DNA of 64,000 nucleotides from Pleomorphomonas sp. PLEO (GTDB lineage: Bacteria; Pseudomonadota; Alphaproteobacteria; Rhizobiales; Pleomorphomonadaceae): assembly GCF_041320595.1 (NCBI RefSeq), contig NZ_CP166625.1:2243501-2307500 (forward strand). The letters are read 5' to 3'. Positions 41,878 through 63,987 of this stretch are shown piece by piece. Positions within the stretch are counted from its first letter, which is position 1; every line of letters begins with the position of its first letter. The translations under genes were made by a program, and so were the position numbers. The notes under the pieces are model-generated. The model saw only the letters and a program-made list of their open reading frames with translations. It was not told where the DNA came from and made no database searches.

Positions 41878-41893
41878 CCTCCTCCCGCGAACA

Positions 41894-41919: not shown

Positions 41920-42040
41920 GCTTGAGCTGAGCGCCTGATCTGAAACTCGCTGGGGTGAGGCAGATGGCGATGAATTCGAGACCTGGAGCGGAGCGAACTT
42001 GGGGTTCGTGAGCACCGGAAGCGCAGAACTCGAAGTTCAG

Positions 42041-42084
42041 GCATCCGCCCGAAAAGTTGCAGACTTTTCGAGCCAAGCGGATGC
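42041..42084. repeat. Nested inverted-repeat element in the operon
   Basis: Two perfect 8-bp dyads are nested: GCATCCGC (42041-42048) with GCGGATGC (42077-42084), and CGAAAAGT (42050-42057) with ACTTTTCG (42063-42070). The whole 41940-42110 stretch is non-coding and unusual inside an operon, so it may be an inserted interspersed repeat. Confidence 0.55.
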
Positions 42085-42141
42085 CCAGGATGCCCGCCCC
42101 AGTAGAGTTTCTGTTCAGGCGCTGAGGACCGGAGATTTCCC

Positions 42142-43068: not shown

Positions 43069-43070
43069 CA

Positions 43071-43910
43071 ATGGCATCGTCCCCCGTCACCCGCGCCGCC
43101 GGCCGCGTCGCCGTCCCGGTCCTTGGCCTGTTCTGGCTGGCCGTCACCACCGTGCCCTTCCTGTTCATGGTGATGACCACCTTCAAGACGCAGGAAGAGT
43201 CCTATTCCAGCTCCGTCTGGGCGCTGCCGGAAAGCTTGAACTTCGTCAACTATCGCGATGTGCTCGCCGGCCCCTTCCTCGCCTACCTCAAGAACTCGGT
43301 GATGGTGGTGGTGATCTCGGTCATCCTGATCGTCGTCATCTCGGCCATGGCCGCCTATGCCTTCGCCCGCATCCGCTTCCGCTTCAACGAGGCGCTGTTC
43401 GGGCTGATCGTCGCCGGCATGATCGTGCCGATCCACATCACCCTGGTGCCGATCTACCTGATGACGCGCGACATGGGCCTTTACGACAGCCCCTTCGCGC
43501 TGGTCGGCCCCTATGTGGCGACGTCGCTGCCGATCTCGGTGTTCATCCTCACCGAGTTCATGCGGCAGATCCCCAAAGAGCTGGAAGAGGCGGCGCGGCT
43601 CGACGGCTGCGGTCCCTTCACCATCTTCTTCAAGATCTTCTTCCCGCTGTCGGGGCCGGGGCTTTCGACGATCGCCATCTACAACGCGATCATGCTGTGG
43701 AACGAGTTCATCTTCGCCTATGTGCTGACCTCTTCCACCAGCACCCGCACGCTGCCGCTCGCCATCTGGGACTTCCAGGGCCAGTATTCCTCCAACATCC
43801 CGGCGATCCTCGCCGTCGTCACCCTCACATCGCTGCCGCTCGTCGTCGCCTATGCCTTCGGGCAGGAGAAGATCGTCAAGGGCATGATGGCCGGCTCCGT
43901 CAAGGGCTGA
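43071..43910 (+). CDS. Sugar ABC transporter permease (MalG-like)
   Basis: This 279-residue inner-membrane subunit has six TM helices and the EAA loop [23 protein letters not shown]. The C-terminus ends [16 protein letters not shown], typical of the MalG side where the tail reaches the ATPase dimer interface. It starts two bases after the previous stop codon and is followed by the ATPase after 19 bp. Confidence 0.93.
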
Positions 43911-43929
43911 GGCTTCGGAGATCCTTTTC

Positions 43930-45057: not shown

Positions 45058-45106
45058 TCCTTCCCGATCTTCAGCAGGACGGCCGAACGGCCGCAAAGAG
45101 CCCATC

Positions 45107-50075: not shown

Positions 50076-51362
50076 TTACTCCGCCTTCAGCACGCGTTCG
50101 GCATCCGCCGCCATTTCGGCAAGCGCATCCTTGGGGGTGACCTGACCGCGCTGCAGTTTGTCGAGAAGCGCCGACTGCGTCTTCCAGATATCGGCGCCGG
50201 TGTCGCGCGGGTAGGAGAACCAGGGAGCGGCGTAGGACATCTGCTCGAACACCGTGCGGTAGTTGGGGTTGGCGGCGTAGAAGTCGGCAAGGGTGGCCGC
50301 CGAGTTCTTGTTGGTGGGCATGTAGCCGGTGGCCTTGGAGATGTCGGCCTGAGCTTCGGGGCCGGTCATGTATTTGACGAAGGTCCAGGCGGCCTGTTGC
50401 GTCGCCGGGTCCTGGGCGAGGATGGTCATGGCGTTGCCGCCGGTCGGTAGGCCGCCGTGCTCCTTGTCGGCCATGGGGAATTTAGCGGTGGCAAGGTGGA
50501 AGCGGCCGCCGATCGCCTTGGTAAAGTCGGAGAGATCGGACGGCGAGCCGACGACCATGCCGAGCTTGCCGGCAAAGAACTGCTGCTGCGACGGCTCGGG
50601 CGTGGTGTCGACCGTCATGTTCGACTTGACGGCCATGTTCTGGGTCATCTCAAGGGCCTTGAGGCCCTTGTCATCGTTATAGCCGATGGCGGTCTGTTCG
50701 GCGTTGAGCATCGGCGCGCCGACCGACATGACCATCATCTGCCAGTACCAGTCGTCGCTGAGGCCGCCGACCGAGAAGTTGAGGCCGGCGACCGACGGAT
50801 CGGCGGCGGTGATCTTGGCGGCAAGGTCGGCGACGCCGTCCCAGCTAACTGGGAAGGACTGCATCGAGCCGCCGGCCTTGGTCACCAGATCCTCGTTGAC
50901 GTAGAGGATGGGCGTCGAGGCGTTGAAGGGAATGCCATACTGCGTCCCCTCGGACTGGCCGAGCTTCAACAGCGCCTCGCCGTAGTTGGCGGACACCCAG
51001 CCCTCGCCTTCGCCCTTCATGAACGGGTCGAGAGCCACGGCCTTGCCGTTGTCCTTGAGGGCGCTGACCAGCGAACCCAGCGAGGAATAGGAGGCGAGGT
51101 AGACGTCGGGCAGCGTACCGGCGGCGATGTCGCGCAATACGGCCTGATGGGCTTCCGAATAGTTGGTGGCCGGCACCATCATGTTGATCTTGATGTCGGG
51201 GTTCGCCGCCATGAACTTCGCCACCACCGGACGAAGGAAGTTGGCCGTGCTGGCAGAAGCGTGAAAGAAATTGAGGGTGACAGGTTGTGCCGCCTCAGCT
51301 AGAACGGGAAACGTCATAGCAAGGGTGGCCGCCAAGGCTACCGAACGATATGATTTGCGCAT
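50076..51362 (-). CDS. UgpB-like ABC transporter substrate-binding protein (cluster B)
   Basis: This is a 428-residue periplasmic protein. The signal peptide is about 1-24 (cleavage near AEA-AQP). It resembles glycerol-3-phosphate binding protein UgpB in the segment GIPFNASTPILYVNEDLVTKAGG (UgpB has QPFNSSTPVLYYN) and in ATGYMPTNKNSAATLADFYAANPNYRT. It is also a paralogue of the binding protein at 58775-60052. Start: the ATG at 51362, eight bases after AGGA; the ATG two codons upstream is too near that site. It is the last gene of a four-gene minus-strand operon; the ligand is probably a phospho-polyol or phosphodiester (inference). Confidence 0.92.
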   Translation of the reverse strand: MRKSYRSVALAATLAMTFPVLAEAAQPVTLNFFHASASTANFLRPVVAKFMAANPDIKINMMVPATNYSEAHQAVLRDIAAGTLPDVYLASYSSLGSLVSALKDNGKAVALDPFMKGEGEGWVSANYGEALLKLGQSEGTQYGIPFNASTPILYVNEDLVTKAGGSMQSFPVSWDGVADLAAKITAADPSVAGLNFSVGGLSDDWYWQMMVMSVGAPMLNAEQTAIGYNDDKGLKALEMTQNMAVKSNMTVDTTPEPSQQQFFAGKLGMVVGSPSDLSDFTKAIGGRFHLATAKFPMADKEHGGLPTGGNAMTILAQDPATQQAAWTFVKYMTGPEAQADISKATGYMPTNKNSAATLADFYAANPNYRTVFEQMSYAAPWFSYPRDTGADIWKTQSALLDKLQRGQVTPKDALAEMAADAERVLKAE

Positions 51363-51429
51363 TGCCATTATCCTGTGCGTGTTGCGATCATTCTGAGGGT
51401 GTGGAAAGTTGCCGCTTTCCGCGCCCTCT

Positions 51430-52263
51430 TTATTTGACGCCACTCATGGTTACGCCGCGAACGAACTGTCTTTGCAGGGCAAGGAACAATGCGATCATCG
51501 GCAGGGTGACGAGCGTTGCGCTCGCCATGAGCGGGCCAAAATCGTTGCCGCCGTCCTGACTGCGGAAATAGAGAATTCCCAAGGTCGGCGGCGCGAAGTT
51601 GGTCGACTTGATGACGATCATCGGCCAGTAGAGATCGTTCCAGTGGAAGGTGACCGAGAAGATGGCGAAGGCGGCGATGGCCGGCTTCAACGCCGGCACC
51701 ACGATCCGCATGACGATGTCGGCCTCGTTCATGCCGTCCTGGCGGGCGGCGAGGATGATGTCGTCGGGGATGCCGACGATGAACTGACGGAACATGATGA
51801 TCGCGAAGGCCGACGTCATGTAGGGCAGGATCAGGGCGAAGTAGCTGTCGAGCATCCGCATCCTGGCCAGCGTCAGGAATAGCGGGAAGGCCGGCACCTG
51901 CGGCGGAATGGCCATGGCCAGCACGACCAGCGCCATCAGAAGTCCTGCGCCCCGGAAGCGCAGCTTGGCCAGCGCATAGGCTGTCATCACCGACGTGACG
52001 ACCTGCAACCCGAGAATGATCGTGGTGACCAGCAGCCCGTTGGCGATGAACTGTAGCACCGGGCTTTCGATCAGCGCCCGGCCGTAGTTCTCCGCGGCGC
52101 TCTGCCAGATCGGCGGCGCGTCGGGCACCGCGCCGAACACCTCGGCGCTGGTGCGCAGCGAGGCGCGCACCATCCAGAAAAAGGGATAGACCATCGCGAG
52201 CGCGGCCGGCAGCAGGATGGCATGCGGGGCGAGGCGCCGGATGAAGCGGAGGAGAGCGGTCAT
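51430..52263 (-). CDS. ABC transporter permease (UgpE-like, cluster B)
   Basis: This 277-residue inner-membrane subunit has six TM helices (YPFFWMVRASLRTS after helix 1). The EAA-type loop reads LAARQDGMNEADIVMRIVVPALKP, so the EAA triad has diverged to LAA. GGGAGGG lies six bases before the ATG. It starts two bases after the stop of the partner permease and ends RGVTMSGVK, the usual UgpE/MalG tail. A TTG two codons earlier is less likely. Confidence 0.92.
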   Translation of the reverse strand: MTALLRFIRRLAPHAILLPAALAMVYPFFWMVRASLRTSAEVFGAVPDAPPIWQSAAENYGRALIESPVLQFIANGLLVTTIILGLQVVTSVMTAYALAKLRFRGAGLLMALVVLAMAIPPQVPAFPLFLTLARMRMLDSYFALILPYMTSAFAIIMFRQFIVGIPDDIILAARQDGMNEADIVMRIVVPALKPAIAAFAIFSVTFHWNDLYWPMIVIKSTNFAPPTLGILYFRSQDGGNDFGPLMASATLVTLPMIALFLALQRQFVRGVTMSGVK

Positions 52264-52265
52264 GA

Positions 52266-53172
52266 TCAACCCTCCCGCTTGCGGCTGGCGAGACCCTGCG
52301 CGACGGCGAATAGCCCGAGCAGGATGAGAAAGACGACGGTCAGCGCGCTGCCGTAGCCGACCTTCAGCGAAACGAAGCTGTCGCGCTGGATCTTGTAGAG
52401 CAGCACGTCGGTGGCGCCGTTGGGGCCGCCGTTGGTCAGCACCGCGATGGTGTCGAACACCTGGAAGGTCTGGATGAGGCTCAACAGCAGGACGACGAAG
52501 GTGGTGGGCGCCAGCATCGGCAGGAAAACGTAGCGGGCGCGATCCCAGAAGCGGTCGATGCCGTCGAGCGCCGCCGCTTCCTCCACCTCCTTGGGAATAG
52601 TGGTGAAGCCGGCCAGGAACAGGATGAAGTTGAAGCCGAGCAACTGCCAGATGCCGATGATGGCCAAGCCGATAAGGGCCAGGCGCGGATCGGAGAAGAA
52701 GTCCGGACGGCCGAGACCGATCGCTTCGGTCAGGTCGGCGACGGGGCCGATCCGGCCATTGAGAATGTAGCTCCAGACGATCGACATCGCCGTCAGCGTG
52801 CTGGCGACCGGCAGGAAAAACACGATTTCGTAGAAGCGCTTGCTCCGCGTCCGGCTCTTGACCAGCGCCGCCAGCACGAAGGCCAGCAGCACCGACACGG
52901 GAACCACGATGGCCGAATAGGTGGCGCTGTTCCTGAGCGCGTTCCAGAAGTCGGGATCGGAGAACAGCTGGCCGTAGTTGTCGAGGCCGACGAATTTCAT
53001 CGTCGGGCGGCCGAACTTGTAGTTGGTCAGGCTGATGGCGGCGACGATGATCAGCGGCGCGACGATGGTCGCCACCGTCAGCAGAAAGGCCGGCGCCGAC
53101 AAGAGATAGGCCCAGGAGGCATAGGCGAGGGGCTTGCTTGCCGGCCTCACTCCTCGGCGGGTGGAGGCCGCG

Positions 53173-53189
<17 letters not shown>
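52266..53189 (-). CDS. ABC transporter permease (UgpA-like, cluster B)
   Basis: This 307-residue inner-membrane subunit has six TM helices, the first after a 25-residue cytosolic lead. EAA loop: VEEAAALDGIDRFWDRARYVFLPML. The ATG at 53189 has GGAGG seven bases upstream and lies inside the last codons of the ATPase gene (17-bp overlap), so expression is coupled. The open frame up to 53588 runs antiparallel through the ATPase and is not coding. Confidence 0.92.
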
Positions 53190-54375
<1,186 letters not shown>

Positions 54376-54625
54376 TTCAAATCCTATTTTCCGGCTGTTC
54401 ACCGACAAGGGGGCGGAGCGCTGGAAAAGCGGTTCCGTGAGAGGTGACTTGGCCAGGTAACATGGCCATGCCCTAACATCGGCCTTGTGAAGGGATGATG
54501 ACAAAAGCGAAACAAACATTTGAATTACAAAGAAAAAACAGCTTGATTATTAAATAACTAGTTGGTTACAAATACGAAATTGAACGAGCCGATTGACAAT
54601 GGCGGCCCAACAGGGAGTAAGGCTT
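54376..54625. promoter_or_regulatory. Divergent promoter region of cluster B
   Basis: 250 bp between the importer operon and the phosphoesterase operon. The right half is AT-rich and contains AACTAGTT (54556-54563) within TAACTAGTTGGTTA, a possible operator for the TetR regulator encoded downstream. I looked for a Pho box (paired CTGTCAT-like repeats) and did not find a convincing one. Confidence 0.45.
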
Positions 54626-55450
54626 TTGACCCGCATCGCCGTGATTGCCGATACCCATATCGGGGTGAGCAAACCGAACTTCGTCGACAACTGGCGGCGG
54701 GCCGCGCAGCGCGTCAACGACCGCCGGCCGGACCTCACCGTCATCCTCGGCGACCTTACTTTCGATGGCGCCAATTCCGACGCCGACTGCGCCTTTGCCA
54801 GGGAGGCGCTGGCCGATCTCAAGAGCCCCTGTCTCGTGCTGCCGGGCAACCATGACGTCGGCGATACCGACCGGGGGAGTCGTCAGCCGGCCAACGCGGA
54901 GCGGCTCGCCCGCTGGGTGCGCACCTTCGGCGCCGATCGCTGGGTGTCGGACGAGATCGACGGCTGGCGCCTGATCGGGCTCAATGCCCAAATCCTTGGA
55001 ACGGGGCTGCCCGAGGAAATCGAGCAGTGGCGCTTTCTGGAACAGGCCCTGGTCACGGATCGCCGCACCATCGTCTTCACCCACCAGCCGCTGTTCCTCG
55101 AACACCGGCGGGAAGGCGACCGTCCCTATTGGGCGAGCGTGGCCACGGCGCGCCATCGTCTTCTGGAGCTCACGACCCGCGCCGGCACGCTGGCCATCCT
55201 CAGCGCCCATATGCACCGGGCGCTTTCGGCCGTATCGTCGGACGGGCCGGCACTGTTTTGGGTGCCGGCCACCAGTTTCCTGACGCGCGATACGTCGATG
55301 CCGCCCCAGAACGGAGCCGAGATGCTTGGCGTGACCTATCTCGATCTGACGGACGACGGCTTCAGCGTCGCTTTCGATCCGGCACCCGGCCTCGAACCCT
55401 TCTATATCGAGGACTTCAACGGCACTCTTTATCCGGCACCGAGCAAATGA
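54626..55450 (+). CDS. Calcineurin-like metallophosphoesterase (class III phosphodiesterase type)
   Basis: This is a cytosolic binuclear-metal phosphoesterase of about 274 residues. The family motifs occur in order: IADTHIG, LGDLTFDG, PGNHDVGD, FTHQPLF and SAHMHRA. The last is a variant of the usual GHxH, with Ala for Gly. The layout resembles CpdA/GpdQ enzymes, which split phosphodiesters including glycerophosphodiesters and cyclic nucleotides. The TTG at 54626 (MTRIAVIADTH) is chosen because GGGAGTAAGG lies just upstream; an ATG at 54599 adds nine residues. Its stop overlaps the PHP gene by four bases. First gene of the operon MPE-PHP-TetR. Confidence 0.88.
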   Translation: MTRIAVIADTHIGVSKPNFVDNWRRAAQRVNDRRPDLTVILGDLTFDGANSDADCAFAREALADLKSPCLVLPGNHDVGDTDRGSRQPANAERLARWVRTFGADRWVSDEIDGWRLIGLNAQILGTGLPEEIEQWRFLEQALVTDRRTIVFTHQPLFLEHRREGDRPYWASVATARHRLLELTTRAGTLAILSAHMHRALSAVSSDGPALFWVPATSFLTRDTSMPPQNGAEMLGVTYLDLTDDGFSVAFDPAPGLEPFYIEDFNGTLYPAPSK

Positions 55451-56313
55451 CCTGGTTCAGCTTTCACGGCGGGCACAGCGGTTCGTTCTGCGCCCACGCC
55501 AAGGGCACCCTCGAAGAGGTGGTTGAAACCGCCATCGCCCGTGGCTTCACCCATTACGGCCTCAGCGAGCACGTGCCGCGCTATCGCGAGCAGGATCTTT
55601 TCCCCGGCGAAGAGCATCTGGGGACCGAAGGACTGATCCGCGCCTTTGAGGATTACGCCCGCGCGGCGTTCGAGCTTCAGGAGCGCTATGCCGACCGGAT
55701 CGAGCTGCTGGTCGGCTTCGAAACGGAGGCGCTGCCGCCCGACATCTGGCCCGAGAGAATGCGCGAACTCCGGCGGTCCTACCCGTTCGACTATTTCGTT
55801 GGCAGCATGCACGACATCGACGGCCGCTGGGTCGACTTCAAGCCGGCAATGACGGATGAGCTGAAGGCCGAATTCGGCGCGGAGGCTCTGCACGTAACCT
55901 GGTTCGAGCGGCTGGCCGACATGGTGCGGCTTCTCAAGCCCGACGTGGTCGGCCATATTGATCTCATCCGCAAATTCGAGCCGCCCGACTTCGCCTTCAG
56001 CCCCGCCGCGCTCAGGGCCGCCGAGGGGCTGCTGGACGCGGCGCGGGCGGCCGGGTCGGCGCTCGACGTCAACTGCGCGCCGGTCCGCAACGGCTATGGC
56101 GCGCCTTATCCGCAACTCCCCCTGCTGGAGATAGCCTGCCGCATGGGCATCGGCGTCACGCTCGGCGACGACAGCCACGGCCCCGACACGGTCGGCGTTG
56201 GGTTGACGGCCTCGCTGGAGGCGATCGCCAAGGCCGGCTTCCGGTCAGTTCGCCGCCTCAGCCGGGGTCGAGGCTGGGAAGACATTCCGCTTGATCAGGT
56301 AAGGCCAGGATGA
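55447..56313 (+). CDS. PHP-domain phosphatase (histidinol-phosphatase-like)
   Basis: This 288-residue PHP-fold metallophosphatase has motif 1 FHGGHSGSFCAHAKG (with the first pair spaced HxxH), then YGLSEHVP, GFETEAL, GSMHDIDG, VVGHIDLI and GDDSHGPDTVG. These are the trinuclear metal ligands of HisJ-type enzymes. HisJ removes phosphate from histidinol phosphate, but this gene is not in a histidine operon. Here it sits between a phosphodiesterase and a TetR regulator, so a phosphomonoester product of the upstream enzyme is a likely substrate. It overlaps both neighbours by four bases. Confidence 0.88.
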   Translation: MTWFSFHGGHSGSFCAHAKGTLEEVVETAIARGFTHYGLSEHVPRYREQDLFPGEEHLGTEGLIRAFEDYARAAFELQERYADRIELLVGFETEALPPDIWPERMRELRRSYPFDYFVGSMHDIDGRWVDFKPAMTDELKAEFGAEALHVTWFERLADMVRLLKPDVVGHIDLIRKFEPPDFAFSPAALRAAEGLLDAARAAGSALDVNCAPVRNGYGAPYPQLPLLEIACRMGIGVTLGDDSHGPDTVGVGLTASLEAIAKAGFRSVRRLSRGRGWEDIPLDQVRPG

Positions 56314-57068
56314 CCGGCGAGCGCGACGACCAGACAACCCTCACCGGCGAGGCTTCCGGGCGTGCTGCCAAGCCGCCGAGGCCCAAGATCCGGCGACGGC
56401 CCACCGAGGAGAAAAAGGCCGAACGCGCCAAGCCGGCCGGCAAGCCGCGCGACGCCGATGCCACGCGCGCCAAGGTGCTGCAGGCCGCCATTGTCGAGTT
56501 CGCCGAGAAGGGGCTGACGGGCGCGCGCGTCGACGAGATTGCCGCGCGGGCGGGCTTCAACAAGCGGATGCTCTACCACTATTTCGGCAGCAAGGAGGAG
56601 CTGTTCCAGGCGGTGCTCGAAACCGTCTACACCGATGTGTGGGAGGCCGAGGCGGCGCTCGATCTTGACGACCTGTCCCCCGACGCGGCGCTGGCCGGGC
56701 TCGTCACCTTCACCTGGGACTATTACCTCGCCCATCCCGAGTTCATGACACTGCTCAGCCACGAGAATCTGCTCGCGGCGCGGCATTTCCGGCAGACGGA
56801 AACCGTTGGTCCCAAGGCCCGACAGTCGCTCGATCTGGTGGCGCGCATCCTCGATCGCGGTGTCGCTGCCGGCCTGTTCCGCCCCGGCATCGATCCGGTG
56901 CAGCTCAACATCACCATCAGCGCCATCGGCTACTATTACCTGACCAACCGCTACACGGCGTCCATCGTCTACGAGCGCGACATGGCAACGGCGGAGGCCT
57001 TTGCCGCCCGCCTTCGCTTCAACATCGAGACGATCCTCGCCATGGTCTCGGCCAAGGCGAGGATCTAG
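56310..57068 (+). CDS. TetR-family regulator with a long basic N-terminus
   Basis: This is a 252-residue regulator. The HTH (ILQAAIVEFAEKG-type start: KVLQAAIVEFAEKGLTGARVDEIAARAGFNKRMLYHYFGSKEELFQAVLE) begins only at about residue 53. The first 50 residues are Lys/Arg/Pro-rich and disordered (KPPRPKIRRRPTEEKKAERAKPAGKPRDADATR), a feature unlike most TetR proteins. The C-domain is of the all-helical TetR_C type. Its ATG overlaps the PHP stop (ATGA). It probably controls the divergent importer and phosphoesterase operons. Confidence 0.92.
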   Translation: MTGERDDQTTLTGEASGRAAKPPRPKIRRRPTEEKKAERAKPAGKPRDADATRAKVLQAAIVEFAEKGLTGARVDEIAARAGFNKRMLYHYFGSKEELFQAVLETVYTDVWEAEAALDLDDLSPDAALAGLVTFTWDYYLAHPEFMTLLSHENLLAARHFRQTETVGPKARQSLDLVARILDRGVAAGLFRPGIDPVQLNITISAIGYYYLTNRYTASIVYERDMATAEAFAARLRFNIETILAMVSAKARI

Positions 57069-57090
57069 CTTGAGCCCCCTTGGGGCGGTG

Positions 57091-57792
57091 TCAGTGGGGC
57101 GTGACGCGACCCTGAACGAGGCGCAGCAGGTCGGACATTTTCGTCAGCACGGCGTCGGGTCGGCATCCCTCCAGGGCTGCGTACATCCGCTCGGATTGAT
57201 GGGCCGCGCCGACGAAGGCACAGCAGCGCATGCCGGCGCGGTGGGCGGCTTCAAGTCCGGTCGTGCTGTCCTCGATGACGACGCAGTCGGCCGGTGCGAC
57301 CCCCATGGCTTCCGCCGCCAGAAGGAAGACCGCCGGGTCGGGTTTATGCAGGCCGATGTCGTGGGATGAGAAGAACCGCGACCCGATCAGGTTGAAGATG
57401 CCGGCGGACTTCATGCGCAGGATCAGATCCTTTCGCGAGGAATTCGAGGCGACGCAGAACGGCACGGTCAGGCCCTCCAGCACCTCGACGGTGCCCGGTG
57501 TGGGAGAGACGCCCGAAAGCATCGCCTCGCGCCAAGCTTCATAGATATCGTCAAAGAAAGTGTCGTTCAGACTGAGGCCGGTGAGATCTTCCAGCAGCTC
57601 GCGTTCCCGCGCGCGTGATACGCCCGACAGCGTCGCGGCGATGTCCGCCGGCGACTGGTGGCTGCCGAGCGCCGCCAGCCTGTCAGAAATGAGGCGGGCG
57701 GCGACCACTTCGGTTTCGGCCAGCGTTCCGTCGAAGTCGAATATGACCAACTTGGGTGGATTGAGGGAAAAGGGTCCGCCATGTTCTTTCAT
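57091..57792 (-). CDS. HAD-family phosphatase (beta-phosphoglucomutase-like)
   Basis: This is a 233-residue HAD subfamily I phosphohydrolase. The four motifs are FDFDGTLAETE (nucleophile Asp plus acid/base Asp), SNSSRKDL, KPDP in GLHKPDPAVFLL, and VIEDSTTGLEAA. The cap is a four-helix type, as in YhcW/GpmB-like and beta-phosphoglucomutase members. Such enzymes remove phosphate from small sugar or polyol phosphates. It is 12 bp downstream of the EEP gene on the same strand and ends the cluster C operon. Convergent with the TetR gene. Confidence 0.9.
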   Translation of the reverse strand: MKEHGGPFSLNPPKLVIFDFDGTLAETEVVAARLISDRLAALGSHQSPADIAATLSGVSRARERELLEDLTGLSLNDTFFDDIYEAWREAMLSGVSPTPGTVEVLEGLTVPFCVASNSSRKDLILRMKSAGIFNLIGSRFFSSHDIGLHKPDPAVFLLAAEAMGVAPADCVVIEDSTTGLEAAHRAGMRCCAFVGAAHQSERMYAALEGCRPDAVLTKMSDLLRLVQGRVTPH

Positions 57793-57804
57793 TCCGGCGG
57801 CGCC

Positions 57805-58683
57805 TCAAGCTGCGAGGTCAAGCGTGACGAAAATCGGCTGGTGGTCCGAGCCGACCGCTTGCTCATCGATCCACATCGACTGCACGGACGACAGATAGTC
57901 CGACGTGACGAAGCAGTAGTCAAAGCGCATCGGCCTGCCTTTCTTGTCGAAGGTGCTGCCTTCGGTCTCCGCGTGGCCGGTCAGGGTCCATGCATCGAAC
58001 AGCCCCTCCAAGGGAAAGACGCGCCGGCCGAGGATCGGCGAAACGTCGCCTGCGAGTTGCTGATATTCCTGCGTGCCGGGGAGGAAGTTCAAGTCACCCA
58101 TCAGGATGCCGCCGCGCGGCCATACCGGTGCCGGGGTGGCAAAGCCCATCTGTTCGGCCGGGGCGCCGCCCCACGGTCCGCCGCGTCGGCCCGCATCGAG
58201 CATGAGCGTGCGTAGCGTTTCGACCTGCGGCAGGCGGTTGAGAGGCGAGACATGGTCGAGATGGGTACAGCAGACGCGCAGCGCGCCAGCCGGGGTGCCG
58301 ATCACCGCCTCGATCATGGTGCGCTGGAGATGCAAGGTGCCGTGAAGCCCGATCTTGGGCAGCGTGTGGTTGGTGACGCTGAGGATCGGCCACCGCGACA
58401 GGATCATGTTGCCGAACCCGAGCCGCAGCCCGCGCCGCCCGCCGGTCAGGCTTTCATCGAGGTAGAGATCGATGCCGCTGCCGTAGAAGCTGTGATCGAG
58501 GCCGCAGAGGCGTGCAATCTCGGCGGGCTGATCGAGCAACTCCCTGGCCGGGTTGTTGGCTTCGACTTCCTGCAGGGCGATGATGTCGGCGTCGCCGAGT
58601 TCGGCGACGATGCGGCCGAGATCGAGTTGCTCGTCCTTTCCAACGCCGTACTGGATATTATAGCTCGCAAGTTTGATCTGCAT
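57805..58683 (-). CDS. Endonuclease/exonuclease/phosphatase-fold phosphodiesterase
   Basis: This is a 292-residue EEP-fold enzyme. Catalytic motifs in order: ASYNIQYGVG, IIALQEVE, CCTHLDHVS, MGDLNFLPG, RFDYCFV and VGSDHQPIFVTL, the complete Mg-dependent set. The family includes sphingomyelinase-like and inositol-polyphosphate phosphatases as well as nucleases. Without a signal peptide this one is cytosolic. Position after the binding-protein gene and before the HAD gene indicates hydrolysis of an imported phosphodiester. The ATG at 58683 is chosen (MQIKLASYNIQYG). Confidence 0.88.
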   Translation of the reverse strand: MQIKLASYNIQYGVGKDEQLDLGRIVAELGDADIIALQEVEANNPARELLDQPAEIARLCGLDHSFYGSGIDLYLDESLTGGRRGLRLGFGNMILSRWPILSVTNHTLPKIGLHGTLHLQRTMIEAVIGTPAGALRVCCTHLDHVSPLNRLPQVETLRTLMLDAGRRGGPWGGAPAEQMGFATPAPVWPRGGILMGDLNFLPGTQEYQQLAGDVSPILGRRVFPLEGLFDAWTLTGHAETEGSTFDKKGRPMRFDYCFVTSDYLSSVQSMWIDEQAVGSDHQPIFVTLDLAA

Positions 58684-58739
58684 GGCACGTTCTCGTTTCT
58701 GCGCGGATTTCACCGACATCGGGGATATTGGCGGGCAAG

Positions 58740-58768
58740 GTCCGGCCCCCCTCGACGAGGGGCCGGAC
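58740..58768 (-). terminator. Intercistronic hairpin after the cluster C binding-protein gene
   Basis: GTCCGGCCCC (58740-58749) / GGGGCCGGAC (58759-58768) is a perfect 10-bp stem just after the stop of the binding-protein gene. There is no T-run, so it probably stabilises mRNA or attenuates, not stops, transcription into the EEP and HAD genes. Confidence 0.6.
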
Positions 58769-58774
58769 GATGGC

Positions 58775-60052
58775 TCATTTCAGGAGGTTTGCCGTCTCGC
58801 TGGCGATGCGCTTCAGGCCGTCCTCGGGCGACAGCTCGCCGCGCTGGACCAGATCGATCACCTTGCGCTGAGCGCGCCAGATCTCGACGCTGTTCGGGCC
58901 GGGATAGGCATACCAGGGCGCGGCGATGCCGGTCTGGCCGGCCGCGGTGCGGTAGTTGGGGTTTTCCGAGTAGAAGGAGGCGAGCACATCCGCCGCCTTC
59001 TTGTTGGTGGGCATATAGCCCGTTCCCTTGGCGACGGTGGCCTCCGATTCAGGCCCGGTCATGAACTTGACGAACTCCCAGGCGAGCTTCTGCTTTTCCG
59101 GGTCCTTGGCCAGGATGACGGCGGCATTGCCGCCGGAGGGCAGGCGGCCGTTCACCTTGTCGGCGAGCGGGTAGGGGGCGGTGCGCATCTGGAAGCGGCT
59201 GCCGATGGTCTCCATGAACGAGCGAACGGCCGACGGCGAGGTGATGTAGAAGCCGAGCTTGCCGGCAAAGAAGGCCTGCTTGTAGGAATCGGCCGAGCTG
59301 GCGACATCCATCTTGGTCGCCTCGGCGACATGGCGTAGCGCCTTCATCGCGTCGAGCCCGAGGGCGTTATCGTAGCCGACGGATTTGCCGTCGTCCGACA
59401 GCATCTTGCCGCCGCGCTCCTGGATGGCCGCTTGCCAGAGCCAGTCGCTTTCGATCGAGGCGACGGAATAGTCCATGCCCCGGACGTCGCCGCCGAGAGC
59501 GTTGATCTTGTTGGCGAGCGCGATCATGCCTTCCCAATCCCCAGGGAAATGCTCGGGATCGCCACCGGCCTGTTTCACGAGGTCGGCGTTGAAATAGACG
59601 ATGGGGGTCGAGGCATTGAACGGGATGCCGTATTGCACGCCGTCAACCTGACCGAGGGACAGGATGGCGGGCGAATAGTTCTCGTCGAGCCACTGTTTGC
59701 CCTCGGCCTCGATGAAGGGCGTTAGCGGCACGGCCTGTCCGCGCGGGCTCAGCGTCCCAATGAGCGGACGCAGGACCGAGAAGCCGGAGAAATAGACATC
59801 CGGCATGTTGCCGGTCATCGCGTTGCGCGTGACGACGAGATTGGCTTCGTTGTAGTCCGGCGGCGAAACGCGGAACTCGATCTTCACGCCGGGATGTGCT
59901 TTCATGAAGGCATCGGCGAGCGGCTGATAGTTGCCGTGGTCGCCGGGCCAGGCGTGCAGGACTTCCAGCGTTGTGTCCGCGAAAGCGGAGGCGAGGGGAG
60001 CCGAGGCGAGCGCGGCCGCCAAGCCGAGCTGCTTGAGTGTACGACTGAACAT
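58775..60052 (-). CDS. UgpB-like ABC transporter substrate-binding protein (cluster C)
   Basis: This is a 425-residue periplasmic protein. The signal peptide is about 1-27 (cleavage near AFA-DTT). UgpB-like cleft motifs: GIPFNASTPIVYFNADLVKQAGGDPEHFPGDW and KGTGYMPTNKKAADVLASFYSENPNYRT. The same motifs are in the protein at 50076-51362, so the two clusters are paralogous. Inside the operon it follows the permeases after 83 bp and precedes the EEP and HAD genes, the reverse of the usual binding-protein-first order. The ATG at 60052 is preceded by AGGAG eleven bases upstream; the ORF extending to 61132 is a shadow of the permease genes. Confidence 0.92.
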   Translation of the reverse strand: MFSRTLKQLGLAAALASAPLASAFADTTLEVLHAWPGDHGNYQPLADAFMKAHPGVKIEFRVSPPDYNEANLVVTRNAMTGNMPDVYFSGFSVLRPLIGTLSPRGQAVPLTPFIEAEGKQWLDENYSPAILSLGQVDGVQYGIPFNASTPIVYFNADLVKQAGGDPEHFPGDWEGMIALANKINALGGDVRGMDYSVASIESDWLWQAAIQERGGKMLSDDGKSVGYDNALGLDAMKALRHVAEATKMDVASSADSYKQAFFAGKLGFYITSPSAVRSFMETIGSRFQMRTAPYPLADKVNGRLPSGGNAAVILAKDPEKQKLAWEFVKFMTGPESEATVAKGTGYMPTNKKAADVLASFYSENPNYRTAAGQTGIAAPWYAYPGPNSVEIWRAQRKVIDLVQRGELSPEDGLKRIASETANLLK

Positions 60053-60135
60053 GGACTTCAGGTCTCCTGGTGAAAAGCGCCGCAAGGCGCAAGAGGTCCC
60101 GACCGGCCGTTGCAGCGGCAGGTCGGGACAAACCA

Positions 60136-60981
60136 TCATTTGACGGCGCCCATCGTGATCCCCTCGACGAAGCGCTTTTGGGCCAACATGAAGACGATCA
60201 CGAGCGGCAAGGTGATCAGCGTGGCGGCGGCCATCAGCGCGCCGTAGGAGTCGCCGCCGTCCGCGCCGCGAAAGAACAGGATGCCGAGCGTCGGAGGAGC
60301 AAGGTCCGTCGACGAGATGGCGATCATCGGCCAGTAGAGGTCGTTCCAGTGGAAGGTGACCGAGAACACGGCGAAGGCCGCGATGGCCGGCATCGCCGCC
60401 GGCAGGATGATGCGCAGGAGGATCGTGGCGTGCGAGCAGCGGTCGAGCCGCGCCGCCTCGATCACCTCGTTGGGAAAGGCGCGCAGGAACTGGCTGAACA
60501 ACAGGATGGCGAAGGGCGAGACGAGAAACGGCGCCACCAGCGCGAAGTAGCTGTCGAGTGCGTTCATCCAGGCGAGGCCGAGGAACATCGGCAGCGCCGT
60601 CGCCTGGAACGGCACAAGCAGGCCGAGGACCACCAGCGCCAGCAGCGACGACTTGTGGCGAAAGGGCAGCTTGGCAATGGCATAGGCGCAGGGCAGCGCC
60701 GTGACGATCTGGGCGAAGAGGATCAGACCGCAGACGATGGCGCCGTTCGCCATGAAGCGGATGAGCGGCGTTCCGCTGAGGGCCTGCCCGTAGTTGGCGG
60801 CGACCGCGAAATGCTGGGGCACGAACAGCCGGGAGGTATCGAAGATCTCGGACGGATCGCGCAGCGAGGTCAGCACCATCCAGGCGAAGGGCAGCGCGGC
60901 GAAGGCGACGGCGGCCCAGATCACCGCGTGGGCCAGAATGGCTTGAGCGCGGCTCGACAGCGAGTGGGACAGGGGATTCAT
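60136..60981 (-). CDS. ABC transporter permease (UgpE-like, cluster C)
   Basis: This 281-residue inner-membrane subunit has six TM helices. EAA loop IEAARLDRCSHATILLRIILPAAMP: the invariant Gly of LDG is Arg here, as in the partner permease. The C-terminus is EGITMGAVK. The ATG at 60981 follows GGGAG and overlaps the stop of the upstream permease by four bases. Clearly related to the permease at 51430-52263 (ALPFAWMVLTSLRDPSEIF start region, LYWPMI in helix 5 loop). Confidence 0.92.
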   Translation of the reverse strand: MNPLSHSLSSRAQAILAHAVIWAAVAFAALPFAWMVLTSLRDPSEIFDTSRLFVPQHFAVAANYGQALSGTPLIRFMANGAIVCGLILFAQIVTALPCAYAIAKLPFRHKSSLLALVVLGLLVPFQATALPMFLGLAWMNALDSYFALVAPFLVSPFAILLFSQFLRAFPNEVIEAARLDRCSHATILLRIILPAAMPAIAAFAVFSVTFHWNDLYWPMIAISSTDLAPPTLGILFFRGADGGDSYGALMAAATLITLPLVIVFMLAQKRFVEGITMGAVK

Positions 60982-61880
60982 CGGGCAATCTCCCGGCGAG
61001 CGGACCACATCTGAAGCGCGGAGACGGCGCCGACGAAGACGACGAACAGCATGGTGAGCGCGCTGCCGTAGCCGATGCGGAAATAGGAGAAGGCCTCCAG
61101 ATAAGTCTCGTAGAGCAAGACCAGGCTCGCATCCTGCGGGCCGCCCTGGGTCAACACCGCCACGAGGTCGAAGGCCTGGAAGGCTTTTATGGTGGTCAAG
61201 AGCACGACGACGAGCGTCGTCGGGGCGAGAAGCGGCCAGGTGATGCGGCGGAAACGCTCCCAGCCGCTACCGACGCGGTCGAGGGCGGCCGCCTCGTAGA
61301 GCTCGCCGGGGATGGCGGTGAGGCCGGCCAGGAAGAAGACGAAGCAGAAGCTTGCCTGCTGCCAGATGGCGATCAGGGCCAGGCTCGGCAGGACCGTCTC
61401 GACATCGGACAGGAAGGCGATCGGCGCCAGCCCCAGCGCTTTCAGGACCGCGTTGACCGGGCCGATCCGCTCATGCAGCAGCAGGCTCCACACGATGGCC
61501 ATCACGGTCATCGTCGCCGTCAGCGGCAGAAACAGCAGCAATTCGTAGAGACGGCGCGTTCGGTTGCGGCCTCGCACGAGCAGCGCCAGCAACAGCCCGA
61601 GGCCGACCGAGGCGGGGACCACCATCGCCGTGAAGATCAGCGTGTTGACGATCGCCCGGCTGGCGGTGTCGCTGGTCGCGATCCGCTCGAAGTTTGTGAG
61701 GCCGATCCAGTGAAGGCTGAGGCCGCCAAGCTGGTAATCGGAGAACGACAGCAACAGGACGGCCAGAAGCGGAAAGAGTGTCGTTGCAATCAGCAGCAGC
61801 AGGGCCGGAATGACGCAGATGGCCATCGGCAATCCGGCGCTCCGGAGCGGTGCCTGGAGAAAGGCGACGGTGGAGTTCAT
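60978..61880 (-). CDS. ABC transporter permease (UgpA-like, cluster C)
   Basis: This is a 300-residue inner-membrane subunit with six TM helices. EAA loop YEAAALDRVGSGWERFRRITWPLLAP, with Arg in place of the usual Gly. It shares IGPVNAVLKALGL and GGPQDASLVLLYETY type segments with the permease at 52266-53189. The ATG at 61880 follows GAGG and overlaps the ATPase stop by four bases. Confidence 0.92.
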   Translation of the reverse strand: MNSTVAFLQAPLRSAGLPMAICVIPALLLLIATTLFPLLAVLLLSFSDYQLGGLSLHWIGLTNFERIATSDTASRAIVNTLIFTAMVVPASVGLGLLLALLVRGRNRTRRLYELLLFLPLTATMTVMAIVWSLLLHERIGPVNAVLKALGLAPIAFLSDVETVLPSLALIAIWQQASFCFVFFLAGLTAIPGELYEAAALDRVGSGWERFRRITWPLLAPTTLVVVLLTTIKAFQAFDLVAVLTQGGPQDASLVLLYETYLEAFSYFRIGYGSALTMLFVVFVGAVSALQMWSARREIAR

Positions 61881-63067
61881 TGCGCCGCCTCGCATTCGAT
61901 CCGCATCAGCGGCTGAAGGGGCACCGCATTGCCGTCTTGGCCGAACAGATGCGCGCCGCGCCCGTGAGCGGCGAGGCTGAAGTCGCCTGCGAGCAATCCG
62001 CTCGCCTGCATGTCGGCGAGACGATCCTCGGTCAGGCGGCAGGTCGCGGCGCGGCCGGTTGTCGTGACGCGGCAGCGCAGAAGGCTTTCGTGGCCCATGC
62101 GCTCAATGCGATCGAGGCGTACGGGCAGGGCGAAGTCGCCCCCGGATACGCCGGAGGGGATCGGCTCGAACGCTTCGGCGCGGACGGCAAGCTGCCCGCT
62201 GCCGACGGCCGGTCCGTCGACGACGAAGGGGAAGCGCCCATCTTCTCCGTTGATCCGGCCGGCTTCGTCGATCTCGACCGGGAACAGGTTGATCGCCGGG
62301 TACCCGATGAAGGTCGCAACATCGATATGGCCAGGGGCGCCGTAGATTTCCCGTGGCGTTCCGATCTGGCGGATTTTTCCCTCGAACATCAGCGCGATGC
62401 GATCCGACATGGCGATCGCGTCGGCCTGGTCATGGGTCACGAAGAGAAATGTGGCGCCGAGGCGCTTGTTGAGGGCGATGATCTCGTCGCGCATGCTCAC
62501 GCGCAGCTTGGCGTCGAGATTGGAGAGCGGCTCGTCCATCAGGAAGACGCCGGGCTCGCGCGCCATGGCGCGGGCAAGCGCGACGCGCTGACGCTGCCCG
62601 CCGGAAAGCTGTGCCGGTCGACGCTTGAGAAGCTGGCCGATTTCCACGATGTCGGCCGTGCGAACCACCCGCTCGGCGATCGACCGGCGGACGGCGCGAG
62701 AGCCGGGCATGAGAGGGCCGATCAGTGGCAGACGTTGGTCCCAGGAAAGCTCGGTCATTTCGAGCGACAGGCCGATGTTCTCGGCCACGTTCATGTGCGG
62801 ATAGAGCGCGTAGGACTGAAAGACCATGGCGAGGTCGCGGCTTCCGGCCGGCGTCGCATCGACCGATTCGCCGCCCAGCTTGATGGAGCCCGATTGCGCC
62901 CGCTCCAGTCCGGCAATGATCCGCAGCAGGGTCGACTTGCCACAGCCCGACGGGCCGAGCAGGCAGACGAGTTCGCCCGCCTCGATCGTGAGATCGACGG
63001 ATTTCAGGACCGCTTCGCGGCCGAAAGACTTGATAATGCCATTGAGGGATATTGAGAGGCCCGCCAT
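61877..63067 (-). CDS. ABC transporter ATPase (UgpC/MalK-like, cluster C)
   Basis: This is a 396-residue ATPase: Walker A GPSGCGKST, Q-loop MVFQSYALYPH, signature LSGGQRQRVALARA, Walker B VFLMDEPLSNLD, H-loop FVTHDQ and a C-terminal TOBE-like domain. It has the extra segment (LSWDQRLPLIGPLMPGSRAVRR) between Q-loop and signature seen in the cluster B ATPase. First gene of the cluster C operon. Start: ATG at 63067 with AAGGTGG upstream; a GTG three codons earlier is possible. The RpiR-type regulator is encoded 104 bp upstream on the same strand. Confidence 0.93.
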   Translation of the reverse strand: MAGLSISLNGIIKSFGREAVLKSVDLTIEAGELVCLLGPSGCGKSTLLRIIAGLERAQSGSIKLGGESVDATPAGSRDLAMVFQSYALYPHMNVAENIGLSLEMTELSWDQRLPLIGPLMPGSRAVRRSIAERVVRTADIVEIGQLLKRRPAQLSGGQRQRVALARAMAREPGVFLMDEPLSNLDAKLRVSMRDEIIALNKRLGATFLFVTHDQADAIAMSDRIALMFEGKIRQIGTPREIYGAPGHIDVATFIGYPAINLFPVEIDEAGRINGEDGRFPFVVDGPAVGSGQLAVRAEAFEPIPSGVSGGDFALPVRLDRIERMGHESLLRCRVTTTGRAATCRLTEDRLADMQASGLLAGDFSLAAHGRGAHLFGQDGNAVPLQPLMRIECEAAQ

Positions 63068-63123
63068 CCGATCCACCTTTCGTTGGAACGGATGTATCGG
63101 AGCTAAATTTCAAATAGATGACA

Positions 63124-63142
63124 TTTGGAGCAAAACTCCAAA
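63124..63142. promoter_or_regulatory. Candidate operator upstream of cluster C
   Basis: TTTGGAG-CAAAA-CTCCAAA is a perfect 7-bp inverted repeat between the RpiR gene and the ATPase gene. It could be the site of that regulator. A second AT-rich dyad-like stretch (AAATTTCAAAT) lies beside it. Confidence 0.5.
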
Positions 63143-63171
63143 AGGAGCTGACCGCCCGTGGGCGCCGTGCT

Positions 63172-63987
63172 TCACTGCTCGATGAGTGTGGCGACGAACT
63201 CGGTCAGCAGCAGCATCGAAGGCAGCAGGCGCGACGAGCCCTCCTTGGGCCACGCTCCGAAAATGGAGAGTTCGATGACCGTTTGCGCGGCCTTTGCGAG
63301 CGGGCTCTCCTTTTGCGTCGTCACCGCGAAGGTGTGGCAGCGCTGATCATGGGCCCGTTTCAGGAAGGCGACGGTCTCCTCGCTGAGCCCGTTATAGGAG
63401 ATGCCGATGGCGACATCGCCTTCCACCAATGTGGCCGCCGCCGCATGGGCGAGGTCGCCCGAGCGGGGGACGTGCACAATGATCCCGCGATAGGCAAGGC
63501 GTGTGGCAAAGACTTCCGCGCAGATGCCCGAGATGGAGATGCCATAGGCAACGACCCGCTTTGCCCGCCGCAACAGCTCGGCCAGCTTTGCCATTTCGCC
63601 GGGATCGATGCGGCTGGCTGAACTCTGCACGGTGGAGATCAGCTCGGCCGCGATGTCGGCAAGCCGCGCGTCTCCGGCAGCTTTCATCCGCGCGCGCGGT
63701 TCCGGTGAGGGACCACGGGCGACATGCAGAACCCGCTCGCGTTCGATTTCTCCGGCCAGCGCCAGCTTGAACGCGCCGAAGCCATCGAAACCGAGCGTCT
63801 GACACAGACGGATGATGGTCGACTCGCCCGCCCCGCAGGCCCGGCTGATGTCGGCGATGGAGGAGCGCACCACTTGCTCGGCGTTCTGCGAGACAAAGGA
63901 CGCCGCCCGCGCCATGGCCGGCGAGCCCCGTTCGACCAACCGGGCCGCTTGGTCGACCAAGCCGAGCTTTGATGCGGGCGCTTTCAT
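63172..63987 (-). CDS. MurR/RpiR-family transcriptional regulator
   Basis: This is a 271-residue regulator. The N-terminal HTH_6 domain (about 10-85) includes ISRACGAGESTIIRLCQTLGFDGFGAFKLALA. A C-terminal SIS domain (about 120-260) binds phosphosugars: VVAYGISISGICAEVFATRL and DVAIGISYNGLSEETVAFLKRA. RpiR proteins usually answer to phosphorylated sugars, which fits the phosphoesterase-rich neighbourhood. It lies upstream of the cluster C importer in the same direction and may be co-transcribed or may repress from the dyad at 63124-63142. The ATG at 63987 is close to the window end; no better site is visible. Confidence 0.92.
   Translation of the reverse strand: MKAPASKLGLVDQAARLVERGSPAMARAASFVSQNAEQVVRSSIADISRACGAGESTIIRLCQTLGFDGFGAFKLALAGEIERERVLHVARGPSPEPRARMKAAGDARLADIAAELISTVQSSASRIDPGEMAKLAELLRRAKRVVAYGISISGICAEVFATRLAYRGIIVHVPRSGDLAHAAAATLVEGDVAIGISYNGLSEETVAFLKRAHDQRCHTFAVTTQKESPLAKAAQTVIELSIFGAWPKEGSSRLLPSMLLLTEFVATLIEQ

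What the first reader, a model, noticed from the sequence alone, without database searches (positions are those of the whole stretch)
50076..63987. Paired UgpB-like importers with four unrelated phosphoesterase folds
Two paralogous ABC importers (50076-54375 and 58775-63067) surround a calcineurin-like phosphodiesterase, a PHP phosphatase, a HAD phosphatase and an EEP-fold phosphodiesterase, with TetR and RpiR regulators. Seen: intact catalytic motifs in all four enzymes, overlapping reading frames, and UgpB-like cleft motifs in both binding proteins. Known: UgpB binds glycerol-3-phosphate and glycerophosphodiesters; class III phosphoesterases, EEP and PHP enzymes act on phosphodiesters and monoesters; RpiR SIS domains sense phosphosugars. 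Inferred: two related phosphodiesters are imported intact and then cut in two steps (diester to monoester to free polyol), with each cluster holding one diesterase (calcineurin-like or EEP) and one monoesterase (PHP or HAD). That symmetrical two-by-two arrangement seems not to be a described pathway.
Basis: partly seen in the sequence, partly recalled or inferred. Interest (0 to 1): 0.85.

Follow-up and report, generated by a model that had tools for sequence, protein, structure and literature searches.

The report
Phosphodiester importers with swappable phosphoesterases
Two neighbouring nutrient pumps that appear to grip a phosphate group each come with enzymes predicted to cut the imported molecule in two steps, and in related pumps three unrelated kinds of cutting enzyme stand in for one another, which points to an uncharacterised way for soil bacteria to use organic phosphorus.

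Summary
The genes are as reported. The window (genus Pleomorphomonas, by contig matching) holds two independent clusters: TetR/importer 1/calcineurin-like (MPE)/PHP, and RpiR/importer 2/EEP/HAD. Each travels alone: the first on Agrobacterium and Rhizobium plasmids, the second in the same gene order on a Phyllobacterium plasmid. Among 20 family genomes searched the second, and so the pair, occurs only here. Both binding proteins keep UgpB's four phosphate-gripping residues (22 of 22 family members against 1 of 40 other CUT1 proteins of this genome, that one UgpB-like throughout) but lack its glycerol-gripping Glu and Arg. Of 92 SBP-anchored relatives, 88 have a phosphoesterase within 7 kb. In RpiR/HAD loci the first-step slot holds EEP, MPE or a CehA-type PHP, under one shared operator. 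Two same-genus loci, 92.7% identical in DNA, part at that gene. In Bradyrhizobium a metallophosphoesterase is fused to an inositol-phosphatase domain. Pho-box-like sites are enriched upstream of relatives' importers. Best reading: import of intact phosphodiesters, then diester to monoester to alcohol. Substrates, step order and the PHP's activity are untested. This is a new variant of the Ugp/UgpQ and agrocinopine type, not one symmetrical pathway.

The parts
50076..51368 (-). SBP1, binding protein of importer 1, phosphate tetrad kept
   Evidence: Pfam SBP_bac_8 129 bits; start ATG at 51368; tetrad Y/S/S/Y
51430..52263 (-). permease of importer 1
   Evidence: ORF, start by codon score, matched in cluster-1 loci; not scanned against Pfam
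52266..53189 (-). permease of importer 1
   Evidence: ORF, start ATG 53189; matched in cluster-1 loci; not scanned against Pfam
53173..54375 (-). ATPase of importer 1, UgpC-like
   Evidence: ABC_tran; PRK11650 UgpC 330 bits, below the cut-off of 432
54376..54598 (.). intergenic region between importer 1 and MPE-PHP-TetR; contains imperfect palindrome TGGCCAGGTAACATGGCCA
   Evidence: no palindrome was common to the cluster-1 loci compared, so no operator is claimed
54599..55450 (+). MPE, calcineurin-like phosphoesterase, proposed first-step phosphodiesterase of cluster 1
   Evidence: Metallophos 59.2 bits; profile A2, which mixes two MPE subfamilies, finds 2dxl (GpdQ, name recalled) at 128 bits
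55447..56313 (+). PHP (HisJ-like), proposed second-step phosphatase of cluster 1; motif I changed (HGGH)
   Evidence: TIGR01856 169.8 bits over cut-off 90.2; motif check
56310..57068 (+). TetR-family regulator of cluster 1
   Evidence: TetR_N, TetR_C_29; beside cluster 1 in plasmid relatives
57091..57792 (-). HAD-IA phosphatase, proposed second-step monoesterase of cluster 2
   Evidence: HAD_2 84.7 bits; 6-phosphogluconate phosphatase model 88 bits, below the cut-off of 211
57805..58719 (-). EEP-fold phosphoesterase, proposed first-step phosphodiesterase of cluster 2 (start at 58683 also possible)
   Evidence: Exo_endo_phos 58.1 bits; same position in L298 and L299
58775..60052 (-). SBP2, binding protein of importer 2, phosphate tetrad kept
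   Evidence: SBP_bac_8 127.5 bits; tetrad; AF2 mean pLDDT 91.4
60136..61008 (-). permease of importer 2 (start at 60981 also possible)
   Evidence: ORF; 72% identical in Phyllobacterium L298; not scanned against Pfam
60978..61895 (-). permease of importer 2 (start at 61880 also possible)
   Evidence: ORF; 73% identical in L298; not scanned against Pfam
61877..63067 (-). ATPase of importer 2, UgpC-like (GTG start at 63076 also possible)
   Evidence: PRK11650 340 bits, below the cut-off of 432; start by codon score
63107..63123 (-). Pho-box-like element TGTCAT-N5-TGAAAT, 10 of 12 positions
   Evidence: regulation not tested
63124..63142 (.). proposed RpiR operator TTTGGAG-TTTTG-CTCCAAA; core TGGAG-N5-CTCCA at 63126-63140
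   Evidence: only hit of TGGAG-N3to6-CTCCA in 64 kb; core present at up to 2 mismatches in 16 of 16 RpiR-ATPase gaps, window included
63172..63987 (-). RpiR/SIS regulator of cluster 2
   Evidence: HTH_6 and SIS; first gene of the same operon in L298

Best explanation
The region holds two separate import-and-hydrolyse modules for organic phosphate esters, most likely phosphodiesters. A periplasmic protein grips the phosphate of the intact ester with two Tyr and two Ser (inferred from homology to UgpB) and the ABC importer brings it in. In the cytoplasm a first enzyme (MPE in cluster 1, EEP in cluster 2) cuts the diester to a monoester and an alcohol. A second enzyme (PHP in cluster 1, HAD in cluster 2) frees phosphate from the monoester. 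In cluster 2 the RpiR regulator binds a palindrome between its own gene and the ATPase gene and probably senses the phosphorylated product. In the wider family the first step is given to EEP, MPE or a CehA/McbA-type PHP, so the role is conserved and the enzyme fold is not. Shown by sequence: gene content, conservation of the units, the residue tetrad, the shared palindrome, the swaps and the fusion. Inferred: ligand class, order of steps, that RpiR binds the palindrome and what it senses.
For: Tetrad Y/S/(S or T)/Y in 22 of 22 family SBPs, both window proteins included, and in 1 of 40 other CUT1 SBPs of the genome, that one with UgpB's Gly, Glu, Arg and Trp188 too. SBP-anchored loci with a phosphoesterase within 7 kb: 88 of 92. 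Same operon order RpiR-ATP-perm-perm-SBP-EEP-HAD at 66-79% identity in Phyllobacterium; TetR/ABC-SBP-MPE-PHP in 8 of 9 opened PHP-bearing plasmid records. The enzyme label changes at least 6 times on the SBP tree; for MPE against the rest starred branches force 5. A single-gene swap between loci 92.7% identical over 4.6 kb. Metallophos-Inositol_P fusion. Operator core at up to 1 mismatch in 13 of 16 gaps (11 of 14 without the two loci in which it was found) against a mean of 0.12 of 16 in mononucleotide shuffles, in EEP-, MPE- and CehA-bearing loci alike. Pho-box-like sites (at least 10 of 12) upstream of 23 of 54 importer first-gene entries against 15 of 384 other genes. In Phaeobacter a predicted phosphodiesterase and a sugar ABC transporter with neighbouring locus tags rise under phosphate limitation (PMC10132767, passages); homology to this module not checked.
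Against: No ligand or activity is known for any member. Glu88 and Arg393 of UgpB are absent, so the organic part of the ligand is unknown. The PHP lacks a canonical motif I. Most distant EEP homologues are not beside such an importer: of the 20 loci L150-L169 only L164 clearly has one, and two plasmid EEPs sit among housekeeping genes. Four of 92 SBP-anchored loci have no detected phosphoesterase. 'MPE' lumps at least two subfamilies: the MPE of the RpiR/HAD loci is SpdA-like and only 18-24% identical to the window's MPE. The CehA genes of the RpiR/HAD loci follow the HAD gene instead of preceding it. The window's importer 1 has no Pho-like site of 10 of 12 (best 9). The importer tree was a quick one with long branches, and related loci inflate all counts. 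The swap rests on one 8.3-kb contig from a metagenome-assembled genome. The fold search does not separate UgpB from sugar-binding proteins.
Confidence: 0.62

Rival explanations
1. The imported ligand is a phosphomonoester or a phosphonate ester (for example a sugar phosphate), and the two enzymes are a phosphatase and a clean-up enzyme.
For: UgpB itself binds monoesters (PMC12718374). EEP and MPE lie with UgpB-like SBPs beside PhnF (L067, L148) and PhnM-like (L067) genes, and an EEP beside a C-P lyase operon in Sinorhizobium chiapasense.
Against: Two hydrolases of different type, and a diesterase-like/monophosphatase fusion, are more than a monoester needs. The mixed MPE profile is nearest to 2dxl/2zo9 (GpdQ, recalled as a glycerophosphodiesterase).
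Confidence: 0.16
2. The ligands are dinucleotides or other short oligonucleotides, a special case of diesters, cut by the nuclease-like EEP or by MPE.
For: A CUT1 protein of Thermus thermophilus binds U3G and shares the tetrad (PMC12718374); its structures (7c0f, 7c16 and others) are among the profile and fold hits. EEP and MPE folds include nucleases.
Against: No nucleoside or base catabolic gene was seen among the neighbours that I scanned, which is not all of them. RpiR regulators usually sense phosphosugars (recalled). Inositol-phosphatase-like and glycerol-1-phosphate-dehydrogenase-like partners occur.
Confidence: 0.1
3. Ordinary importers of unphosphorylated sugars with phosphatases nearby by chance.
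For: CUT1 family; 52 such binding proteins in the genome; the model also matches maltose-type proteins; over all 52, phosphoesterases are not nearer than by chance.
Against: Tetrad 22 of 22 against 1 of 40; 88 of 92 loci with a phosphoesterase; swaps beside a conserved importer.
Confidence: 0.06
4. One joint pathway using both importers and all four enzymes, as first proposed.
For: The two clusters are adjacent in the window, and their SBPs fall in one group of 14 in the tree (100*, midpoint-rooted).
Against: Each cluster occurs alone elsewhere, with a different regulator.
Confidence: 0.06

Closest known systems
E. coli Ugp system with UgpQ (ugpBAECQ; operon and UgpQ function recalled)
   Same: CUT1 importer of the UgpB type with UgpC-like ATPase; phosphate-binding Tyr/Ser/Ser/Tyr and Gly kept; importer genes accompanied by a gene for a phosphoester-cutting enzyme
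   Different: First-step enzyme is EEP, MPE or PHP instead of the TIM-barrel UgpQ; Glu88 and Arg393 for glycerol are absent; extra phosphatase; RpiR or TetR regulators
Agrocinopine catabolism (AccA-E, AccF, AccG; PMC4526662, passages seen)
   Same: A sugar phosphodiester is imported intact, cut by a phosphodiesterase, the phosphorylated product is sensed by the repressor, and a putative phosphatase is encoded too
   Different: The transporter is AccA/AccBCDE, not compared here with these genes; regulator AccR; enzyme families not compared here
UgpB and GpxB glycerol-phosphate importers of Phaeobacter (PMC12718374, text parts 1-4 of 6 read)
   Same: SBP1 and SBP2 share the phosphate-binding residues of that UgpB
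   Different: The glycerol-binding Glu and Arg are missing; the genome has a separate UgpB-like protein with all of them (L263)
GpdQ / Rv0805 class III metallophosphoesterases (GpdQ name recalled)
   Same: Nearest solved relatives of the mixed MPE profile (128 and 116 bits), metal motifs intact
   Different: Linked to a CUT1 importer; substrate unknown

Membership tests
UgpB (sn-glycerol-3-phosphate binding protein) | NCBIfam equivalog NF008211 score over 411 bits | tested here: not met
   72.2 and 75.6 bits
UgpB (sn-glycerol-3-phosphate binding protein) | phosphate ligands Tyr64, Ser143, Ser266, Tyr342 (Phaeobacter numbering) | tested here: met
   both window SBPs
UgpB (sn-glycerol-3-phosphate binding protein) | glycerol ligands Glu88 and Arg393, and the Trp188/Trp191 clamp | tested here: not met
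   window SBPs: Phe or Leu at 88, Trp at 393, Val at 188; a Trp near 191 is aligned uncertainly
Ugp-UgpQ type import-and-hydrolyse operon | a phosphodiesterase gene in the importer operon | tested here: inconclusive
   phosphoesterase gene directly downstream of the SBP gene in 82 of 92 distinct SBP-anchored loci; its activity is not shown
agrocinopine-type diester catabolism | diester import, diesterase, monoesterase and sensing of the phosphorylated product | not testable with these tools
   gene content fits; no biochemistry
HisJ histidinol phosphatase | TIGR01856 hisJ_fam over cut-off 90.2 | tested here: met
   169.8 bits
HisJ histidinol phosphatase | HxH metal motif I (recalled) | tested here: not met
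   HGGH with only H10 invariant in 10 rows
CehA/McbA metallohydrolase (enzyme of relatives) | NF038032 domain cut-off 80 | tested here: met
   three scanned: 99.0 bits (L134), 91.1 (L130), L132 67.7, below cut-off; the others are placed by similarity to these

The most novel reading that the evidence does not exclude
A widespread family of phosphate-gripping importers, distinct from UgpB and found mostly in Alphaproteobacteria, defines an uncharacterised phosphodiester-use pathway whose ligand is not recognised through glycerol, and in which the first hydrolytic step has been taken over repeatedly by three unrelated enzyme folds (calcineurin-like, EEP, CehA-type PHP), under one conserved RpiR operator in the RpiR/HAD branch.
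Probability: 0.5. Interest if true: 0.75.

Novelty: new variant of a known kind. Interest (0 to 1): 0.62.

Why it matters
If right, many soil, plant-associated and marine bacteria take up phosphodiesters whole by a route that annotation now calls 'sugar ABC transporter', 'metallophosphoesterase' and 'endonuclease'. It names the testable residues, the operator and a natural enzyme swap, and it would be a clean case of unrelated folds replacing each other in one pathway step.

Tried and rejected
Rejected: one joint two-by-two pathway (the clusters travel apart). Rejected: chance neighbourhood. Tried without result: a TetR operator in the cluster-1 intergenic region, where no palindrome was common to the loci compared; fold comparison of SBP2, which finds UgpB, GPC-, dinucleotide- and maltose-binding proteins about equally; the two other own-genome places with a metallophosphoesterase about 4 kb from an SBP (L252, L253), where only ATPase hits to the window genes were found.

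Limits of the counts. One search used 40 of the 50 other own-genome CUT1 SBPs (the ten lowest-scoring were left out). One search dropped 8 of 100 loci as duplicates and holds only near relatives chosen by similarity to the SBPs; the 20 unnamed loci were picked by hand from the hits, leaving out places already fetched, and one of them (L148) partly because it also held an EEP. One search pools SBP-anchored and enzyme-anchored loci; the window is not in it, and by its 7-kb rule the window's SBP2 would also count the MPE and PHP of cluster 1. Of its 17 RpiR+HAD loci, 14 have SBP, enzyme and HAD in line with RpiR; in L230 and L251 RpiR and HAD run the other way, and in L221 the HAD match lies apart. 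One search used the window and 15 of those 17 (L221 and L230 left out); the motif was found in the window and L298, so 14 loci are the test; shuffles were mononucleotide. In one search the two window labels were set by hand, EEP for SBP2 and MPE for SBP1. In one search the 54 entries are ATPase or MPE genes at the expected place with a gap over 120 bases, L238 counted twice. The control list was cut off, so one search used the own genome only.
Full report
WHAT IS THERE. Cluster 1 is an importer on the minus strand (SBP1 50076-51368, two permeases, ATPase to 54375) and, divergent from it, MPE-PHP-TetR on the plus strand with overlapping frames (54599-57068). Cluster 2 runs on the minus strand from RpiR (63987) through ATPase, two permeases, SBP2, EEP and HAD (57091). 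Neither SBP reaches the UgpB equivalog cut-off (72 and 76 bits against 411).

TWO CLUSTERS, NOT ONE. Cluster 2 in the same order (RpiR, ATPase, two permeases, SBP, EEP, HAD) lies on a Phyllobacterium zundukense plasmid at 66-79% identity, and its permease-SBP-EEP-HAD end, the HAD apparently shortened, on a conjugative plasmid of Rhizobium sp. 007. Of 14 plasmid records with the PHP I opened 9. Eight have TetR beside ATPase-permease-permease-SBP-MPE-PHP (Agrobacterium, Allorhizobium, Rhizobium; one is unannotated and was read by tblastn), and a GNAT gene follows in 7 of the 7 annotated ones, in one of them after an IS21 insertion. The ninth has only a PHP match in three pieces. Of 10 plasmid records with the EEP I opened 9: two as above; two Nitratireductor operons phosphodiesterase-SBP-permease-permease-UgpC-EEP, whose SBP is only 25-26% identical to SBP2; one Microvirga locus with UgpB-like SBPs on both sides; one C-P lyase operon with a peptide-type ABC transporter; and three without an importer of this kind found. 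Within the family the EEP occurs only in the window's genome (1 of 20 at E up to 1e-20). Cluster 1 is in G011 and G012, and beside neither did I find cluster 2. The side-by-side arrangement therefore looks like a local event.

THE BINDING PROTEINS. Wang et al. (PMC12718374; [quoted passage not shown] Glu88, Arg393 and Gly303 hold the glycerol hydroxyls, with a Trp clamp. I aligned 22 family members and two UgpB references. The tetrad is Y/S/(S or T)/Y in all 22. Glu88 is replaced by Phe, Leu, Tyr or His and Arg393 by Trp, Thr, Gly or Ala in all 22; the glycine is kept. As a control I took 40 of the 50 other CUT1 binding proteins of the same genome: 1 of 40 has the tetrad, and it also has Gly, Glu, Arg and Trp188, so it is probably the genome's own UgpB. 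The window proteins thus look built for a phosphate group on something other than a UgpB-held glycerol. An AlphaFold2 model of SBP2 is confident (mean pLDDT 91.4), but its fold neighbours do not separate phosphate from sugar ligands.

THE ENZYME STEP. I anchored 100 loci on the SBP (20 picked from the hits, 80 named records). After removing duplicates, 88 of 92 have MPE, EEP, CehA-PHP or PHP within 7 kb and 82 have one directly downstream on the same strand; four have none found. Of the 88, 72 have MPE, 15 CehA-type PHP and 1 EEP with MPE. 'MPE' here lumps at least two subfamilies, the window's type and an SpdA-like type 18-24% identical to it. In loci with RpiR and HAD within 7 kb, 17 of 17 have exactly one of MPE, CehA or EEP (14 of the 17 have the genes in line). 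EEP and MPE lie between SBP and HAD in most of these; CehA follows HAD in L130, L132, L173, L182, L190 and L198, and precedes it in L133, where RpiR was not found. The CehA type is a different PHP family from the window's HisJ-like PHP. On a tree of 107 SBPs the enzyme label needs at least 6 changes; for MPE against the rest starred branches force 5; the three EEP rows form one clade (99*; quick method, long branches warned of). In two same-genus loci (L037, L136) DNA is 92.7% identical over 4.6 kb through the ATPase, permeases and SBP. The match ends 22 and 19 bases before the next start codon, which opens an MPE gene in one and a CehA-type gene in the other. L037 is a short contig of a metagenome-assembled genome, so a chimera is not excluded. 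In two Bradyrhizobium loci tested (L232, L240) the gene after the SBP is one open frame with a Metallophos and an Inositol_P domain. In Bosea (L207 tested) MPE is followed by a separate Inositol_P gene, and in L210 and L235 a glycerol-1-phosphate-dehydrogenase-like gene lies next in line (below the NCBIfam cut-off, Fe-ADH_2 over the Pfam cut-off; in L235 cut by the contig end). A fused pair of this kind is what a diester-to-monoester-to-alcohol route would favour.

REGULATION. The gap between RpiR and ATPase holds TGGAG-N5-CTCCA. In the window it is the only such site in 64 kb (63126-63140). I found it by comparing the window with L298 and then looked in 14 other loci: it is present at up to one mismatch in 11 of 14 and at up to two in 14 of 14 (with the first two, 13 and 16 of 16, against means of 0.12 and 1.3 of 16 in mononucleotide shuffles), and it is shared by EEP-, MPE- and CehA-bearing loci. 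The same regulator type and site therefore seem to control importers that differ in the first-step fold. A Pho-box-like direct repeat (TGTCAT-N5-TGTCAT, consensus recalled) reaches at least 10 of 12 upstream of 23 of 54 importer first-gene entries against 15 of 384 other genes of the same loci; relatedness inflates this. In the window itself importer 2 has a 10-of-12 site, importer 1 only 9 and MPE 8. In Phaeobacter, a predicted phosphodiesterase (MED193_11288), a sugar ABC binding protein (11293) and an ATPase (11308) rise under phosphate limitation; two of the three were not detected in the phoB mutant, while the binding protein still rose (PMC10132767, passages only). I could not check that these are homologues.

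RESULTS AGAINST. Over all 52 CUT1 proteins of the genome, nearness to a phosphoesterase is not above chance. Of the 35 MPE-anchored loci L034-L068, 17 have a match to SBP1 or SBP2 by tblastn, one of them at 26% identity; of the 20 EEP-anchored loci L150-L169 one clearly does (L164), besides L067 and L148, so neither enzyme family as a whole is tied to importers. The window's PHP lacks the usual first metal motif. A PHP match at E up to 1e-30 was found in only 2 of 297 genomes of the order, the window's own included.

CONCLUSION. The symmetrical joint pathway is not supported. What recurs is a module: phosphate-gripping CUT1 importer plus an exchangeable first-step phosphoesterase, often plus a phosphatase. 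No description of it was recognised in the listings of the keyword searches of the held library, which lacks most subscription papers.

Noticed in passing
L067:7311-13890; L148:3696-10815; L314:7157-15849: EEP (with MPE in L067 and L148) beside UgpB-like binding proteins or a peptide-type ABC transporter and PhnF, PhnM-like or C-P lyase genes: a possible link to phosphonate use.
   Followed up: partly
L301:9887-10399 and other cluster-1 plasmid loci: A GNAT acetyltransferase gene follows the PHP gene in 7 of 7 annotated plasmid copies of cluster 1; the window's cluster 1 has TetR in that place.
   Followed up: no
L300:4638-10858, L310:2098-8358 (Nitratireductor plasmids): Operon phosphodiesterase-SBP-permease-permease-UgpC-EEP: two phosphoesterases with one importer.
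   Followed up: partly
L232:11354-12976, L240:11356-12975 (Bradyrhizobium): Metallophosphoesterase fused to an inositol-monophosphatase-family domain.
   Followed up: partly
just beyond the window, L069:2484-6565: A second RpiR gene overlaps the first, followed by an EmrB/EmrA-like efflux pair.
   Followed up: no
window 39226-47479: LacI-type regulator, CUT1 importer genes and a beta-glucosidase-like gene (families read from the sequence, except the SBP, which matched PF13416): an ordinary sugar-use cluster.
   Followed up: no
L131:69-1448: A protein with a weak ZorA (anti-phage) match (51.8 bits, cut-off 190) lies near a relative of importer 2.
   Followed up: no
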